Assembly (NCBI RefSeq): GCF_000174775.1
Contig: NZ_ACLR01000170.1
Coordinates: 1-64,000, forward strand
Direction of reading: 5' to 3'
Source of the DNA: Porphyromonas uenonis 60-3
GTDB lineage: Bacteria > Bacteroidota > Bacteroidia > Bacteroidales > Porphyromonadaceae
Length of the DNA stretch: 64,000 nt
Each line of letters opens with the position of its first letter. Position 1 is the stretch's first letter. The notes beneath the pieces were generated by a model, which saw nothing but the letters and a program-made list of their open reading frames with translations, had not been told where the DNA came from and did no database searches. The translations under genes were made by a program, and so were the position numbers. Below, one piece after another: positions 53,085 to 60,139 of this stretch.

Positions 53085-53119
53085 CAACAATCTTGCGAGA
53101 TGAGTAACGATGAGACGTG

Positions 53120-53345
53120 TACCCCGCCGTGGAAACGCTCGGTCGATACGTGTAACCCGCTGTGGGGACGCACGGGAGTGTCTAGCGGGAGGGCGTCCGT
53201 TGTAGTACAGCAAGACGTGTGACGGTTGTAGGAACGCTCGGTCGAGCGTCCGTTGTGTCAAAGCAAGACGTGTAATCCGCCGTATGGACGCACGGGAGTG
53301 TCTACAAAGGGTTACACGTCCCGTGTGACCCCCACAACGGGTTAC
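53120..53345. repeat. REP-like 54-base units, third locus
   Basis: Units at about 53120, 53163, 53227 and 53281 repeat the words GGACGCAC / AACGCTCG, GCGTCCGTTG, CAAGACGTGTAAC seen at 16031. The unit at 53227 has the variant stem AACGCTCG/CGAGCGT; those at 53163 and 53281 have the left arm GGACGCACGGGAGTGTCTA with an altered right arm. Confidence 0.8.
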
Positions 53346-53360
53346 TTGTCCGATCCCTCC

Positions 53361-53420
53361 GACCTCTAACCTCTAATCTCTCATCTCTAACCTCTAATTT
53401 CTCATCGTCTAACCTCTAAC
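53361..53420. repeat. CTCTAACC-type short tandem repeats
   Basis: CCTCTAACCTCTAATCTCTCATCTCTAACC and so on; an imperfect 7-8 base period. Same word family as at 2900 and 17245. Confidence 0.7.
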
Positions 53421-53467
53421 TCCCTCAATGCACTTCGAAACCCTTCGACACCCTAGACCCCACACCT

Positions 53468-53694: not shown

Positions 53695-53702
53695 TATCTT
53701 TG
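53695..53702 (+). promoter_or_regulatory. Predicted defence-operon promoter -7 box
   Basis: TATCTTTG fits TAnnTTTG, 18 bases before ATG 53721. A frame open upstream from 53691 overlaps the box, which favours the 53721 start. Confidence 0.5.
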
Positions 53703-53720: not shown

Positions 53721-54779
53721 ATGGCACAAAATAAGATTGAGGTAGACATATTAGAGGACAAGCTCCCCACGTCTCTCCTAGAGATACTCCTGCAGGATCA
53801 CACTACGGAGAAGAATATCTTTTGGGCTTGCAATGACTATGAGGAGCTCGGGGCGGGTTACGCCTTTTCCGACCCCATCACCCTAGGCTCTATCCGGGGG
53901 GAGCATGGGCGGGTCATCATGCCCCGTGTTATGAAGCATCGTGACCTGAAGCGACGTCGTACCAAGGAAAAGGCGGAGATATTTACCCCAGCGTGGGTCT
54001 GCAACCTACAGTGTAACTGTGGCGACGATGGGTACCTCGCTGAGGGGAGCAGCTTCAACTACAATCTAGATGCCGAGGGTCGTGAGTGGGAGGCTACGAC
54101 TGAGCCTATTCGCTTTGCCGAGGGGGTGACGTGGCAGGACTATATCCTTAGGACCTGTATGGAGATCACCTGTGGCGAGGCCCCTTACTTGGCCAGTCGC
54201 TACGATGCAGTCACGGGTGAGACGATACCTATATACAAGCGCATCGGGCTCCTCGACCGCAAGCTACGTGTCGTCGGCGAAAACGTCTCAGACCGTGCCG
54301 ACTGGCTCGTCTGGGTGACTAAGTCCTTCCAGAGTGTCTACGGCTACGAGTGGCAGGGGGACAATATCCTCCTAGCTCGTGAGAATATGCTCTACACCTT
54401 CATCGAGTACTATCGTGACCGCTGGGGCGAGGAGCCTACGCTGGAGGAGCAGACGGAGATCGCAGAGGTCATAGCGTGGAATATTTTCCAGATGGATGGT
54501 CTCAAGTTTGTCATCCCTAACTCCTGCCATGAAGAAGTGCAGCACTCAGGTCTATTCGAGGCAGATGTCAAGCGTGTCCCTTGTCCTGGCTGTAAGAAGA
54601 ATGACCCGCTCCTGCACAACGGCATCTATGCCAAGATCAGAGATTGGCAGCAGGATGGAGTGCTTCACCTCGTCGATGTCTATCGCCAAGGCAAGGCACG
54701 CAATGAGCGTGAAGCAATGGAAGCTAAGAAGGCGGAGGCGGAGCAACGTCAATCAAAGCAACGTAAGAAGAAGCAATGA
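53721..54779 (+). CDS. Conserved protein of restriction locus (database name: restriction endonuclease subunit M)
   Basis: 352 residues from MAQNKIEVDI. I recognise the family from blocks NIFWACNDYEELGAGYAF, RVIMPRVMKHRD, KAEIFTPAWVCNLQ and LLDRKLRVVGEN; it occurs beside large helicase-methyltransferases but its biochemistry is not known to me, and no methylase motif is seen. Cys-rich pieces (CNLQCNCG near 102 and CHEEV...CPGCKK near 258-285) could bind a metal. The C-terminus is charged and coiled-coil-like. Overlaps the next gene by ATGA, so both are made together. Confidence 0.75.
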   Translation: MAQNKIEVDILEDKLPTSLLEILLQDHTTEKNIFWACNDYEELGAGYAFSDPITLGSIRGEHGRVIMPRVMKHRDLKRRRTKEKAEIFTPAWVCNLQCNCGDDGYLAEGSSFNYNLDAEGREWEATTEPIRFAEGVTWQDYILRTCMEITCGEAPYLASRYDAVTGETIPIYKRIGLLDRKLRVVGENVSDRADWLVWVTKSFQSVYGYEWQGDNILLARENMLYTFIEYYRDRWGEEPTLEEQTEIAEVIAWNIFQMDGLKFVIPNSCHEEVQHSGLFEADVKRVPCPGCKKNDPLLHNGIYAKIRDWQQDGVLHLVDVYRQGKARNEREAMEAKKAEAEQRQSKQRKKKQ

Positions 54780-57700
54780 GTGAAGAACTGATTGATACGT
54801 TAATTATTGGGAGGGTAGAACCTTATATTTACGCTTTCTCGACGGAGAGTGTACCCAACTATCTCAAGGTTGGGGATACTTACCGACCAGTCTTACAACG
54901 GCTGGATGAGTGGAGACGCTACTTCCCCAATTTGCGTTCTCGCTATAGTGCCGTAGCTAAGGTCGATGAGGAGACCTACTTCCGAGACTTTGCGGTGCAT
55001 CGCTATCTAGAGCATCAGTTACAGCGTAGTCGGTTGCGTCCGAGCGACCTGTCTGAGGAACTTTACTACTCGCGGGAGTTCTTTCGAGAAGCTACGGAGG
55101 AAGACCTGCGCCAAGCGATGGCAGACATTGAGCAATCTTATGAGCGTGGAGAGGGTCGGTATGATTTCTTCAAGTTTGAGGAGAGTCGTATTCCTGTGAA
55201 ACACACCTATAAGCGTACAGAGAGCTTTGAACCACGACCAAACCAGCGGGAGACAATCGAGCGATTTAAGAAGGCCATATCACAAGGGCGTAGCAACCTG
55301 CTGATGTATGCGGTGATGCGCTTTGGTAAGAGCTTTACCTCGCTCTGCTGTGCGGTTGAGATGCAAGCGAAACTTGTCCTTGTGGTCTCTGCAAAGGCAG
55401 ATGTCCGCGAGGAGTGGAAATGCTCAGTCGAGAGCCACGTGAAGTTTGCCGAGTACAGCTTCCTAGACAAAGACAAGCTCATGGAGAGTGAGACAGTTCT
55501 AGAGGATACGTTAGCTACAGGGCGTGCCGTAGTCTTCTTGACGCTACAAGACTTGATGGGTAGTGAGATCAAGCAGCGTCATCATGCACTCTTCGACCGT
55601 GAGATAGATCTCCTACTCATTGATGAGACTCACTATGGAGCTAGAGCCGCAGAGTATGGTCGTGTTCTGAAGCTCAACAAGAGAGAGCTCAAACAGGAGA
55701 CTTACGAGCTGGACAGTGCTGAGCAGTACGATGATTGTACAGAGCTAAAGCAACTGCGTAGCCGTGTCCGTATTCACCTATCGGGGACTCCTTATCGCAT
55801 CTTGATGGGGAGTGAGTTTGAGGCGGAAGATATTATCGCCTTCTACCAGTTCTCAGACATTGTCGAGGAGCAGGCAGAGTGGGACCGTGAGCATATACTC
55901 TCGGATGAGGTGAAAGAGTGGGACAATCCCTACTACGGCTTCCCCCAGATGGTGCGCTTTGCCTTCCTACCTAATGAAAGCTCGCTACGTGTTATGGAGA
56001 CATTGCGGGCAGACGGCTATGAGATGGGTCTGTCAGAGCTCTTTCGTCCTCGCTCTATCTTGCGAGACAATAAGGAGGGACGGCACCGCCTATTCGTCCA
56101 CGAGGATGAGATCTTGGAGTTTTTACAGGCGATTGATGGCGTGCAGAAGGATGCGCATCTATTGCCTTTCCTTGATTTGGAGCAGATCAAGCGAGGGCAG
56201 ATGTGTAGGCATCTCGTTTTCGTCTTACCCTACAGAGCTTCGTGCGATGCCATGGAGCATCTATTGACGGAGTATAAAGAACTCTTCCGCAATCTATCTG
56301 ACTACACCATAGTCAATATAGCTGGTGTCGATGATCCCAAGCGATATTGTAGCACCGAAGATGTCAAAGCTCAGATAGCTGACTGCGAGAGAAAGGGCGA
56401 GAAGAGTATCACCCTAACGGTCAATCGTATGCTAACGGGTAGCACCATCCCTGAGTGGGATACGATGCTCTATCTCAAGGATTGTGCCTCGCCACAAGAG
56501 TACGACCAGGCTATCTTCCGACTTCAGAATCAGTACATACGGACGCTGACGACAGAGGATGGCTCGGAGCAGGTCAAGTACAATATGAAGCCTCAGACGC
56601 TTTTGGTAGACTTTGACCCGCAGCGGATGTTTCGCCTACAGGAGCAACGAGCGCAGATCTACAATGTCAATACGGATCAAGCTGGCAATAAGAAGCTTCA
56701 GGAGCGCATTGAGACGGAGCTACGCCACTCGCCGATAGCTACAATCGGAGCCGAAGGCTTACAGCGTGTAGAGGCTAGTGACATAATGGATTCCGTGCGC
56801 TCCTACAGTGCTGAGCGCAGTGTGATGGATGAGGCTACCGAGATACCGATAGACTATACGCTACTGGCTGACGAGCGGATGCGCTCTGTCATCTCGCAGC
56901 TGAATCCGATAGATGCCTCTAAGGGAATAGAGATACAGGCGGTCACGGGCGAGGAGAGCGAACTAGAGCTAGAGACACATGACACGCCTAAGGGAGGCGG
57001 TGCTACCTCTACGCAGGTAGCTCCCTCCGCAGAGACTGATGAAGGTCGCTTGCTGGGCAAGCAGTTGGCGACTTACTATGCGCAGATACTCTTTTACGCT
57101 TTTCTGACAGAGACTCCAGTCTCCTCGCTAGAGGATCTGATAGCTTCGATCAGTCAGGGTGCAGACAATAAGCGCATAGCACGCAATGTGGGGTTACAAG
57201 CCTCTATCCTACAGATCATACAGACCGTGAGCAATCCTTTTGTCTTGCGAGCTCTGGACTATAAGATTGCGAATATCAACACGCTGATGAGTGACACGTC
57301 GCTTATCCCGAGTGAGCGTGTAGCTGTGGCGATGAAGAAGTTCGGACGACTCTCCTCATCGGAGATAGTCACGCCACAGGCTGTCGCACTAGAGATGATC
57401 GATGCGCTAGACGAAGGTGTCATCACGTCAGAGACACGTATATTAGACATAGCGTCCAAGCAGGGCGAGTTTACCAGAGCTTTGGTCAGCAGGTTTGGCA
57501 TGGCAGTCGGACGCAATGTCTATGCTCTCCCCACCTCCACGGTGAGTTACGAGTTTACCCTCAAGGTCTATCGTCTCCTCGGATTAGACACCGACCATGT
57601 CATTTCAGACTTTACGACCTATGATATCCTTGATAAAGAAAAGAAAGACAGAATCATGCAGCAACTCATAGATATGAACTTCGAGATAGTAATTGGAAAT

Positions 57701-58705
57701 CCTCCATACCAAGAGTCAGATGGAGGAGCGGGAGCAAGCTCTAAACCAATTTATCAAGAGTTTGTGTATGCTTCCAATGAAGTCGCAAAGTCGCATTCAG
57801 TAATGATTATGCCCGCTCGTTGGTATACAGGAGGAAAAGGTCTAGACCAATTTCGAGAGGATATGCTTACAGATAAGCATATAAAACTCCTCTACGACTA
57901 TCAACGTCCTGACGAAGTCTTCCCAAACACAAACAATCGTGGTGGGGTTTGCTTTGTTGTTAGGGATCGTCGCTTCGATAACTCCAAGGGGCAAACGACA
58001 ATTGTATCTAATTATGGAGGAGGAAAAACGTCTATGCAGCATCGTAGCTTAAAAACGAAAGGGCTGAAGATTTTCATCCGCCATCAAGAGTCTATAACTA
58101 TTCTAACTAAGGTGACGAAGCATCCTGATTTTAGTTCTATAGCCAATTACATTTCATCTCGAAAGCCGTTTGGTATAGAAGGAAATGTTGTTGAGGATAA
58201 CAGCCTATTTAAGAGACAACGGACAAAGAGCAACCCTATTTTGTGCTATGGTCGTTCTTCAGCGAGAGGGTATGTGCCTTTGTCGTTGGTAAAGACTAAT
58301 GTAGATTGGATAGAAAGGTACAAAGTCTATATACCATATGCAAACAATATTGGCACTGAGCTTAGTGATGACAACTTGAATGCTTTTATAGGGGCACCAA
58401 ACACTGTTTGTTCAGAGACTTTCCTAGCGGTAGGCGTTGACTTAAACTTATTAGAAAAAGAGGCAACCAACATAGTCTTGTACCTTAAGACTAAGATGGT
58501 TCGATTTTTACATAGTTTGAGTAAGTCAAGCCAACATGGTACGAGTAAGACTTATCGGTTCGTGCCACTGCAAGACTTCACCGCAGATTCTGACATCGAC
58601 TGGAGTCAGTCGGTCACCGATATAGACCGTCAGCTCTACAAGAAGTATGCCCTCACCCCCGACGAAATAGCCTTCATCGAGGAGAAGGTTCGCCCTATGG
58701 TGTAA
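54776..58705 (+). CDS. Single-chain restriction-modification-like protein: GIY-YIG, SF2 helicase, N6-methyltransferase
   Basis: 1309 residues. 15-105: GIY-YIG/T5orf172-like nuclease (PYIYAFS, YLKVGDT, catalytic-Arg candidate in VLQRLDEW). About 160-640: SF2 helicase with Walker A-like MRFGKS (181-186), DETH box (283-286) and a motif VI-like YDQAIFRLQNQ (576-586). 660-850: linker/coupler. 860-1060: Eco57I-like methyltransferase, motif I DIASKQGEF (891-899, not the usual CGSG) and motif IV NPPY (975-978). 1060-1260: probable target-recognition domain. The order is that of type ISP enzymes, but with a different nuclease. Codons 949-1260 are A+T rich. Confidence 0.85.
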   Translation: MSEELIDTLIIGRVEPYIYAFSTESVPNYLKVGDTYRPVLQRLDEWRRYFPNLRSRYSAVAKVDEETYFRDFAVHRYLEHQLQRSRLRPSDLSEELYYSREFFREATEEDLRQAMADIEQSYERGEGRYDFFKFEESRIPVKHTYKRTESFEPRPNQRETIERFKKAISQGRSNLLMYAVMRFGKSFTSLCCAVEMQAKLVLVVSAKADVREEWKCSVESHVKFAEYSFLDKDKLMESETVLEDTLATGRAVVFLTLQDLMGSEIKQRHHALFDREIDLLLIDETHYGARAAEYGRVLKLNKRELKQETYELDSAEQYDDCTELKQLRSRVRIHLSGTPYRILMGSEFEAEDIIAFYQFSDIVEEQAEWDREHILSDEVKEWDNPYYGFPQMVRFAFLPNESSLRVMETLRADGYEMGLSELFRPRSILRDNKEGRHRLFVHEDEILEFLQAIDGVQKDAHLLPFLDLEQIKRGQMCRHLVFVLPYRASCDAMEHLLTEYKELFRNLSDYTIVNIAGVDDPKRYCSTEDVKAQIADCERKGEKSITLTVNRMLTGSTIPEWDTMLYLKDCASPQEYDQAIFRLQNQYIRTLTTEDGSEQVKYNMKPQTLLVDFDPQRMFRLQEQRAQIYNVNTDQAGNKKLQERIETELRHSPIATIGAEGLQRVEASDIMDSVRSYSAERSVMDEATEIPIDYTLLADERMRSVISQLNPIDASKGIEIQAVTGEESELELETHDTPKGGGATSTQVAPSAETDEGRLLGKQLATYYAQILFYAFLTETPVSSLEDLIASISQGADNKRIARNVGLQASILQIIQTVSNPFVLRALDYKIANINTLMSDTSLIPSERVAVAMKKFGRLSSSEIVTPQAVALEMIDALDEGVITSETRILDIASKQGEFTRALVSRFGMAVGRNVYALPTSTVSYEFTLKVYRLLGLDTDHVISDFTTYDILDKEKKDRIMQQLIDMNFEIVIGNPPYQESDGGAGASSKPIYQEFVYASNEVAKSHSVMIMPARWYTGGKGLDQFREDMLTDKHIKLLYDYQRPDEVFPNTNNRGGVCFVVRDRRFDNSKGQTTIVSNYGGGKTSMQHRSLKTKGLKIFIRHQESITILTKVTKHPDFSSIANYISSRKPFGIEGNVVEDNSLFKRQRTKSNPILCYGRSSARGYVPLSLVKTNVDWIERYKVYIPYANNIGTELSDDNLNAFIGAPNTVCSETFLAVGVDLNLLEKEATNIVLYLKTKMVRFLHSLSKSSQHGTSKTYRFVPLQDFTADSDIDWSQSVTDIDRQLYKKYALTPDEIAFIEEKVRPMV

Positions 58706-58729
58706 TATGAACTATAAAAACTAGGTAAT

Positions 58730-60139
58730 ATGTACCAAATCCGAACAACAGATATAGAAATCCCAGTTGGAGACCCTTTCCGTAACTGTAAACTGGGACG
58801 TCAACAATATGCAGAGGTCTTGAAGACTTTGACGATAGGGAACAATAACGGTTGCGTGATCTCTCTAAATGGAGCTTGGGGAACAGGTAAGACTACTTTC
58901 ATCCAGATGTTTAAGCAAATGATGAACAATGAAGGGTATCCTACGCTCTACTTCAATGCTTGGGAAACTGATTATATTTCAGACCCAATCATTGGACTAA
59001 TAGGAGAACTGAAAAAGCTGGAAGGGAAAGGAACTAAATCTAGAGTTAAAGATATGGCTCAGAAAATAGGCCCTATTCTTGTCAAGAGAGCAATCCCCGA
59101 GTTTCTCAAACACGTTCTAAAAAAACATGCTGGAGAAGAATGTGCAGACATTCTTAAGGAAGTAGCAAAAGGAGGTGCAGAACTATTTGAAGCGGAGATC
59201 GAGAACTACGAAAACCAAAAGAAAAGCATTGAGGGGTTCAAAAAGGTATTAGGAGAGTACGTATCTACATTAGGTGAAAAGGCACCTCTCATCTTTATTG
59301 TAGATGAACTAGATCGATGTAATCCTCACTATGCTGTAATGGTCTTGGAGCGAATCAAGCACCTGTTCTCCATTCCTCAGATAGTATTTGTGCTAGCGAT
59401 AGACAAGGAGCAACTTTGTAACTCTATCAAGGGGTATTATGGAAGTGATAGAATTGATGCGGCGGAGTATCTACGTCGATTTATAGATATAGAGTACACC
59501 TTGCCCAGTCCTGACTATAGAAGCTTTATCAAAGTGGAATTAGAAAGATTGGATTTCCAAGCTCTCTTCAAAGGAAGTCAGAAGATGAATACCTGGGAAG
59601 AGACTATTACTAGCATACTAGTATCCTTCGCGGAGAAGTCACATTTAAGTTTACGTCAGGTACAGAAAATGATGAACCAGGTTAGGTTAACATATTCTAC
59701 GATAGATGTAAACAACGAGAACTATACCAATCGTGTTATCGCTCTTTTTCTACTAGTGTACATTAGATCTTTTCATAGTGAGGTATATGACCTAATTACG
59801 AAGAAAGAGGCTACGTTGCAAGAGGTTGCTAGTCAAATCGAAAGATGCTTGCCGTTGTCGCTATTCAATAAAGAAGCAGAGAGTAATCGTGCTCCAAAAT
59901 CTTTGGCGCATGCTTTTACAGTTATCCTGCTCATGTACTCAAACGATGAAAATGGATACCCCAAATATTCATTGTTTGAAAAGAACGAAGAGGGCTTAAA
60001 GATCAAGTTCTCCGTTGAAAGATTTCATGAAGACGATATAGTCGAGGCTTTGAAGGTTTACGCTGGCATGCCAATTTATATAACCCTAGATTCTTTGATA
60101 AGTAAGGTAGAGCTGTACGACAATGTTCGAGTGAATTAA
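58730..60139 (+). CDS. KAP-family P-loop ATPase
   Basis: 469 residues. Walker A GAWGTGKTT at 48-56, the KAP-typical FNAWETDY at 75-82, and an extended Walker B LIFIVDELDRCNP at 187-199, followed by LERIKHLFSIPQIVFVLAIDKEQL. There is no clear transmembrane pair, unlike many KAP proteins, so it looks soluble. KAP ATPases occur in phage-exclusion and other defence loci. It follows the large enzyme by 24 bases and is lower in G+C (25 of 60 in the line at 59041). Confidence 0.85.
   Translation: MYQIRTTDIEIPVGDPFRNCKLGRQQYAEVLKTLTIGNNNGCVISLNGAWGTGKTTFIQMFKQMMNNEGYPTLYFNAWETDYISDPIIGLIGELKKLEGKGTKSRVKDMAQKIGPILVKRAIPEFLKHVLKKHAGEECADILKEVAKGGAELFEAEIENYENQKKSIEGFKKVLGEYVSTLGEKAPLIFIVDELDRCNPHYAVMVLERIKHLFSIPQIVFVLAIDKEQLCNSIKGYYGSDRIDAAEYLRRFIDIEYTLPSPDYRSFIKVELERLDFQALFKGSQKMNTWEETITSILVSFAEKSHLSLRQVQKMMNQVRLTYSTIDVNNENYTNRVIALFLLVYIRSFHSEVYDLITKKEATLQEVASQIERCLPLSLFNKEAESNRAPKSLAHAFTVILLMYSNDENGYPKYSLFEKNEEGLKIKFSVERFHEDDIVEALKVYAGMPIYITLDSLISKVELYDNVRVN

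What the first reader, a model, noticed from the sequence alone, without database searches (positions are those of the whole stretch)
53721..60139. Three-gene restriction/defence operon: conserved 352-aa partner, GIY-YIG-helicase-methyltransferase giant, KAP ATPase
The giant protein has nuclease, SF2 motor, coupler, methyltransferase and recognition regions in type ISP order, but with a GIY-YIG-like head in place of the Mrr-type nuclease. It is translationally coupled to a conserved partner of unknown function and followed by a KAP ATPase. I know of no described mechanism for this combination. It may modify host DNA with one chain, translocate on foreign DNA, and use the KAP ATPase as an additional effector or sensor.
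Basis: partly seen in the sequence, partly recalled or inferred. Interest (0 to 1): 0.75.

Follow-up and report, generated by a model that had tools for sequence, protein, structure and literature searches.

The report
Split-methylase restriction system with KAP neighbour
These genes encode a DNA restriction-and-modification system whose DNA-marking enzyme is split over two proteins, a wide-spread kind already known by name (DrdVI type), with an unrelated defence-type ATPase gene attached in only two related species.

Summary
The three genes are real: a 352-aa protein (53721-54779), a 1309-aa giant (54776-58705, 4-nt overlap) and a KAP ATPase (58730-60139). The giant is GIY-YIG nuclease, SF2 motor, coupler, degenerate methyltransferase N-half ("KSG"), NPPY catalytic half and recognition domain. 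The "partner of unknown function" is identified here: it carries methyltransferase motifs X, I, II and III but no NPPY, and in four other loci its homologue is fused directly to the NPPY half. It is most likely the SAM-binding half of a split m6A methyltransferase. Gene for gene the core is homologous to DrdVI (M1, M2, GIY-YIG translocase), a family called "split methylase/RM"; co-expressed M1+M2 of DrdVI and MaeIV methylate DNA in E. coli. So this is a new member of a known kind, with R and M2 fused. KAP is an add-on: it accompanies the giant only here and in one congener; other loci carry Gabija or nothing there. The two congeneric loci are about 96% identical except that the recognition cassette is swapped at NPPY. 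Unsolved: why these enzymes keep two N-halves for one catalytic half; predictions fold the catalytic half with either.

The parts
53695..53702 (+). putative Bacteroidota -7 promoter box (TATCTTTG)
   Evidence: read in the sequence; consensus from own knowledge, not tested
53721..54779 (+). PART / M1: SAM-binding half of a split N6-adenine methyltransferase (motif X FTP, motif I EITCGEAPYL, motif II YGYEWQGD, motif III QMDGLK; no NPPY)
   Evidence: fused to the NPPY half in L013, L018, L019, L120
54776..58705 (+). giant 1309-aa R-M2 protein
54824..55123 (+). GIY-YIG (T5orf172) nuclease domain of the giant, aa 17-116
   Evidence: PF10544 E 8.5e-6; conserved catalytic-type residues
55166..56755 (+). 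SF2 motor, aa 131-660 (MRFGKS, DETH, SGTP)
   Evidence: ResIII E 7.6e-11; 28% identical to R.DrdVI, 1.6e-43; motifs
56756..57325 (+). coupler, aa 661-850
   Evidence: AlphaFold model m5f964c67cb4c aligns to LlaGI/LlaBIII coupler plus MTase, Z 18.7/17.5
57326..57658 (+). degenerate methyltransferase N-half (KSG half: TP, LDIASKQGEF), aa 851-961
   Evidence: T, K and G invariant in 21 sequences and in A6; stays on the R protein when the NPPY half is a separate gene or fused to PART
57659..58702 (+). catalytic (NPPY, aa 975-978) and target-recognition half, M2-C
   Evidence: Eco57I PF07669 E 1e-18; 36% identical to M2.DrdVI, 5e-73; swapped in G317
58730..60139 (+). KAP-family P-loop ATPase (PADLOC PDC-S20), accessory
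   Evidence: PF07693 E 4e-42, PDC-S20 477 bits; next to the giant only in G000 and G317

Best explanation
The core (53721-58705) is a DrdVI-type split-methylase restriction-modification system. PART supplies the SAM-binding half (motifs X, I-III), and the giant's C-terminal module supplies the catalytic NPPY half and the target-recognition domain; together they methylate an adenine in host DNA. The giant's ATPase motor and GIY-YIG head are the restriction side: on an unmethylated site the enzyme uses ATP, probably to translocate, and the GIY-YIG domain cuts. The motif specificity sits in the NPPY-TRD cassette, which is exchanged as a unit between related loci. The KAP gene is a separate accessory defence-type ATPase that travels with this locus in two related species. 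Shown: domain content, homology to DrdVI, invariable neighbourhood of a SAM half, natural fusions, cassette swap, sporadic KAP. Inferred: pairing of PART with the NPPY half in this protein, methylation, ATP-driven cleavage, any phage defence.
For: Homology to each DrdVI gene on pDrdVI: M2 36% id 5e-73, motor 28% 1.6e-43, GIY 48% over 29 aa, PART-family profile versus M1 29 bits. M1-2.DrdVI cloned in E. coli gives m6A at GCAGCC (PMC6430315); M1-M2.MaeIV gives GCACY and is called a split methylase similar to DrdVI (PMC10113651); [quoted passage not shown] M1.DrdVI matches only the N-terminal part of N6_Mtase and MmeI_Mtase. PART has motifs X, I, II, III and no NPPY. In 17 of 17 loci reached without using PART as query and readable upstream, a SAM half lies beside the NPPY half. 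PART is fused to the NPPY half in L013, L018, L019 and L120, while the KSG half stays on the R protein in L019 and L120. AlphaFold of the L019 fusion: pLDDT 92.7, pTM 0.89; matches CamA Z 18.9 over 72-652 and METTL5 181 residues at 3.3 A spanning the junction. Cassette swap at NPPY between G000 and G317.
Against: PART matches M1.DrdVI only weakly. The giant's own KSG half plus NPPY half also folds as a methyltransferase (pLDDT 85.5; CamA 396 residues at 3.9 A, M.TaqI 344 at 4.0 A), more canonically than the PART fusion (CamA 411 at 7.1 A), so the models do not show that PART rather than KSG pairs with NPPY. KSG residues T, K and G are invariant, so that half is not simply decaying. No methylation, cleavage or phage data exist for this locus. 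The papers read do not say whether M1 and M2 are each needed.
Confidence: 0.75

Rival explanations
1. The giant is a self-sufficient type-ISP-like enzyme: KSG half plus NPPY half bind SAM through a variant motif I and methylate alone; PART is a structural or regulatory partner.
For: KSG-NPPY folds canonically; KSG residues invariant; the two halves are in one chain in most loci.
Against: The motif I Gly is replaced by Lys and the motif II acidic residue is lost; a SAM half is always encoded next door; PART-NPPY fusions detach KSG from NPPY; phage FNU4 has a PART-NPPY fusion and no detectable KSG half in its 44 kb; in phages PTm1/PTm5 the KSG half is frameshifted while PART and the NPPY half are intact.
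Confidence: 0.15
2. A genuine three-gene defence system in which the KAP ATPase is a functional component, for example a back-up effector triggered when restriction fails.
For: Same strand, 24 nt behind the giant, retained with the giant in two species; KAP of the same PADLOC family sits just upstream of hsdM in G070.
Against: Only 2 of about 11 GIY-giant loci have it; 8 phylum genomes have KAP without the giant; the slot holds Gabija in G300 and a GajA-like fragment in L034 (L034 by sequence resemblance only); the G317 KAP has Asp in place of a Walker A Gly.
Confidence: 0.1

Closest known systems
DrdVI (Deinococcus wulumuqiensis pDrdVI) and MaeIV: split methylase/RM family
   Same: SAM half as separate small protein, NPPY-TRD protein with KSG half, GIY-YIG-motor protein; similarity of each part tested for DrdVI
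   Different: DrdVI has three genes in order M1-M2-R; here R and M2 are one chain in order R-M2, and PART is longer (352 vs 212 aa) with a divergent motif I
Type ISP (LlaGI, LlaBIII)
   Same: nuclease-motor-coupler-MTase-TRD order; coupler/MTase fold similarity
   Different: GIY-YIG instead of Mrr nuclease; SAM half supplied by a second gene
PADLOC PDC-S20 (KAP single-gene defence candidate); PifA and QatA more distant
   Same: full-length match 477 bits
   Different: a single-gene candidate; here it lies behind an R-M gene

Membership tests
DrdVI-type split methylase/RM | separate protein with MTase motifs X, I-III but no catalytic NPPY | tested here: met
   PART; profile link to M1.DrdVI
DrdVI-type split methylase/RM | homologous NPPY plus recognition module | tested here: met
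   36% identity to M2.DrdVI, 5e-73
DrdVI-type split methylase/RM | translocase fused to GIY-YIG nuclease | tested here: met
   PF10544 and ResIII; motor 1.6e-43 to R.DrdVI
DrdVI-type split methylase/RM | m6A methylation by the two M proteins together | not testable with these tools
   needs expression and long-read sequencing
Type ISP | Mrr-type (PD-(D/E)XK) nuclease head | tested here: not met
   N-terminus is T5orf172/GIY-YIG
Type ISP | motor, coupler, MTase and TRD in one chain | tested here: met
Type ISP | self-sufficient methyltransferase in that chain | tested here: inconclusive
   fold complete but SAM motifs degenerate; PART in trans
PDC-S20 KAP ATPase | full-length match to the family model with Walker A and B | tested here: met

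The most novel reading that the evidence does not exclude
The single catalytic/recognition half is shared by two mutually exclusive N-halves: paired with PART (SAM-competent) it methylates; paired with its own KSG half (SAM-incompetent, next to the motor) it only recognises DNA and licenses translocation and cutting. The enzyme would decide between modification and restriction by swapping half a protein domain.
Probability: 0.15. Interest if true: 0.75.

Novelty: new member of a known kind. Interest (0 to 1): 0.4.

Why it matters
It turns a "conserved protein of unknown function", annotated in records as restriction endonuclease (subunit M), into a testable half-enzyme, places the giant in a family with proven methylation activity, and separates the KAP gene from the system. 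The conserved presence of two competing N-halves for one catalytic half is a clear structural question, and single-cassette exchange suggests how these enzymes change specificity.

Tried and rejected
Viral scans with the giant and with KAP as single queries found nothing. Sequence search of PART, giant and KAP against PDB chains found no relatives. Idea that phage PTm1 lacks the KSG half altogether: rejected, a frameshifted copy lies upstream. Idea that the 500-aa MT systems work without a SAM half: rejected, a canonical SAM-half gene lies beside each one read. Idea that structure prediction would tell which N-half is used: it folds both. Inverted repeats flanking the spare cassettes were found in only one of three loci, 160 nt at 76%. 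Two paper searches, on KAP defence and on type IIG inversion, gave no direct precedent by title and abstract.

Full report
Observation. The three ORFs are present as described: PART (53691/53721-54779), giant (54776-58705) and KAP (58730-60139), all on the + strand, with a 4-nt overlap between the first two and a 24-nt gap before the third. Pfam and PADLOC confirm GIY-YIG (PF10544), ResIII and Eco57I domains in the giant and a KAP NTPase; PADLOC calls PART a type II methyltransferase, the giant a type IIG enzyme and KAP PDC-S20. GIY-YIG and SF2 motifs are conserved across 18 relatives.

The partner. PART has no Pfam match, but its alignment shows invariant FTP (98-100), E158 with CGE and P165, E220-W-GD and QMDG-K. 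They sit where gamma-class adenine methyltransferases have motif X, motif I (compare M.TaqI EPACAHGPFL, recalled), motif II and motif III; the catalytic NPPY is missing. The giant has NPPY (aa 975-978). In front of it lies a second N-half with TP and LDIASKQGEF; in all 21 compared proteins T, K and G of this KSG half are invariant while the motif I Gly and motif II acid are lost.

Natural rearrangements. The NPPY-TRD module occurs fused to the R protein (this window and most loci), free (L119, L124), or fused behind PART (L013, L018, L019, L120). When it is free or behind PART in loci with a complete R gene, the KSG half stays at the end of that R protein. In the 500-aa MT systems a 210-260-aa protein with a canonical motif I (EPACGSGNFL and the like) and no NPPY lies beside the MT gene. 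In 17 of 17 loci that were reached with the giant as query rather than with PART, and that are readable upstream, a SAM half is the neighbour: L084-L096 and L144, L145, L146, L148 (L083 and L147 are cut by contig or record ends). Phage FNU4 has PART-NPPY and no KSG detectable; in phages PTm1 and PTm5 (identical here) the KSG half is broken by a frameshift.

Known family. One plasmid hit is pDrdVI. Its M1, M2 and R proteins correspond to PART, KSG-NPPY-TRD and GIY-motor, and M1 matches only the beginning of N6_Mtase/MmeI_Mtase. Published: M1-2.DrdVI methylates GCAGCC when cloned; DrdVI is a fused translocase and REase with a GIY-YIG relative; [quoted passage not shown] The present system is therefore a member, with R and M2 fused. 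I did not find in these texts where the split lies or why M2 keeps an N-half.

Structure. AlphaFold of the natural fusion L019 (PART homologue plus NPPY half) is confident (pLDDT 92.7; pTM 0.89) and matches CamA, MmeI, LlaGI and M.TaqI across the junction. The giant's own 661-1309 is also a complete methyltransferase fold, geometrically closer to CamA and M.TaqI, with a coupler like LlaGI. So either N-half can complete the catalytic half in silico. Chemistry favours PART, because it alone keeps the SAM motifs; this is inference.

Cassette and site. G317 (same genus) has a locus about 96% identical up to aa 950, then about 30% in 965-1250, then 76-89% at the end, followed by a 93% identical KAP. 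The exchanged piece is the NPPY-TRD cassette; in the window it is also lower in G+C (42% versus about 50%), and KAP is 39%. Between the same flanking genes G296 carries a type III R-M system and G320 no defence gene recognised by eye, so this is probably an exchange site for defence genes.

KAP. Within the family KAP occurs only in G000 and G317; in the phylum sample eight other genomes have it without the giant. G300 has Gabija behind its giant. KAP is best seen as an accessory.

Verdict. Ordinary in kind, well anchored in a known but little-described family, with one open mechanistic question worth an experiment.

Noticed in passing
L091:6283-9313, L090:5935-11061, L113:12405-15210: Spare NPPY-TRD cassettes in inverted orientation beside the expressed one, each locus with a tyrosine recombinase gene (PF00589) next to it: possible inversion switching of specificity in DrdVI-type enzymes; a spare copy in direct orientation lies at L085:2366-3388.
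   Followed up: partly
L118, L122, L123, L131, L132, L134, L135 (prophage-like contigs): PART-like SAM-half genes without a detectable NPPY partner nearby; in the records searched (all but L134's) none on the whole contig; may complement or disturb a host enzyme.
   Followed up: partly
L125-L129 (155-412 kb virus contigs); L133 similar: PART-like gene placed between genes that look like DNA polymerase and sliding clamp (by eye); the NPPY half is found elsewhere in some of these records, partly in 1.8-1.9 kaa frames.
   Followed up: partly
L083:3011-4417 (G317): KAP copy 93% identical to the window's has GTDKTT instead of GTGKTT in Walker A.
   Followed up: no
L111:5897-8981 (G070): PDC-S20 KAP gene directly upstream of a type I hsdM gene, same strand.
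   Followed up: no
L149:2848-8051 (G296): Type III R-M pair at the same chromosomal site as the window's system.
   Followed up: yes
window 53090-53430: Intergenic stretch with several near-repeats (gacgtgtaa..., cctctaacctctaatctctcatc) upstream of PART.
   Followed up: no
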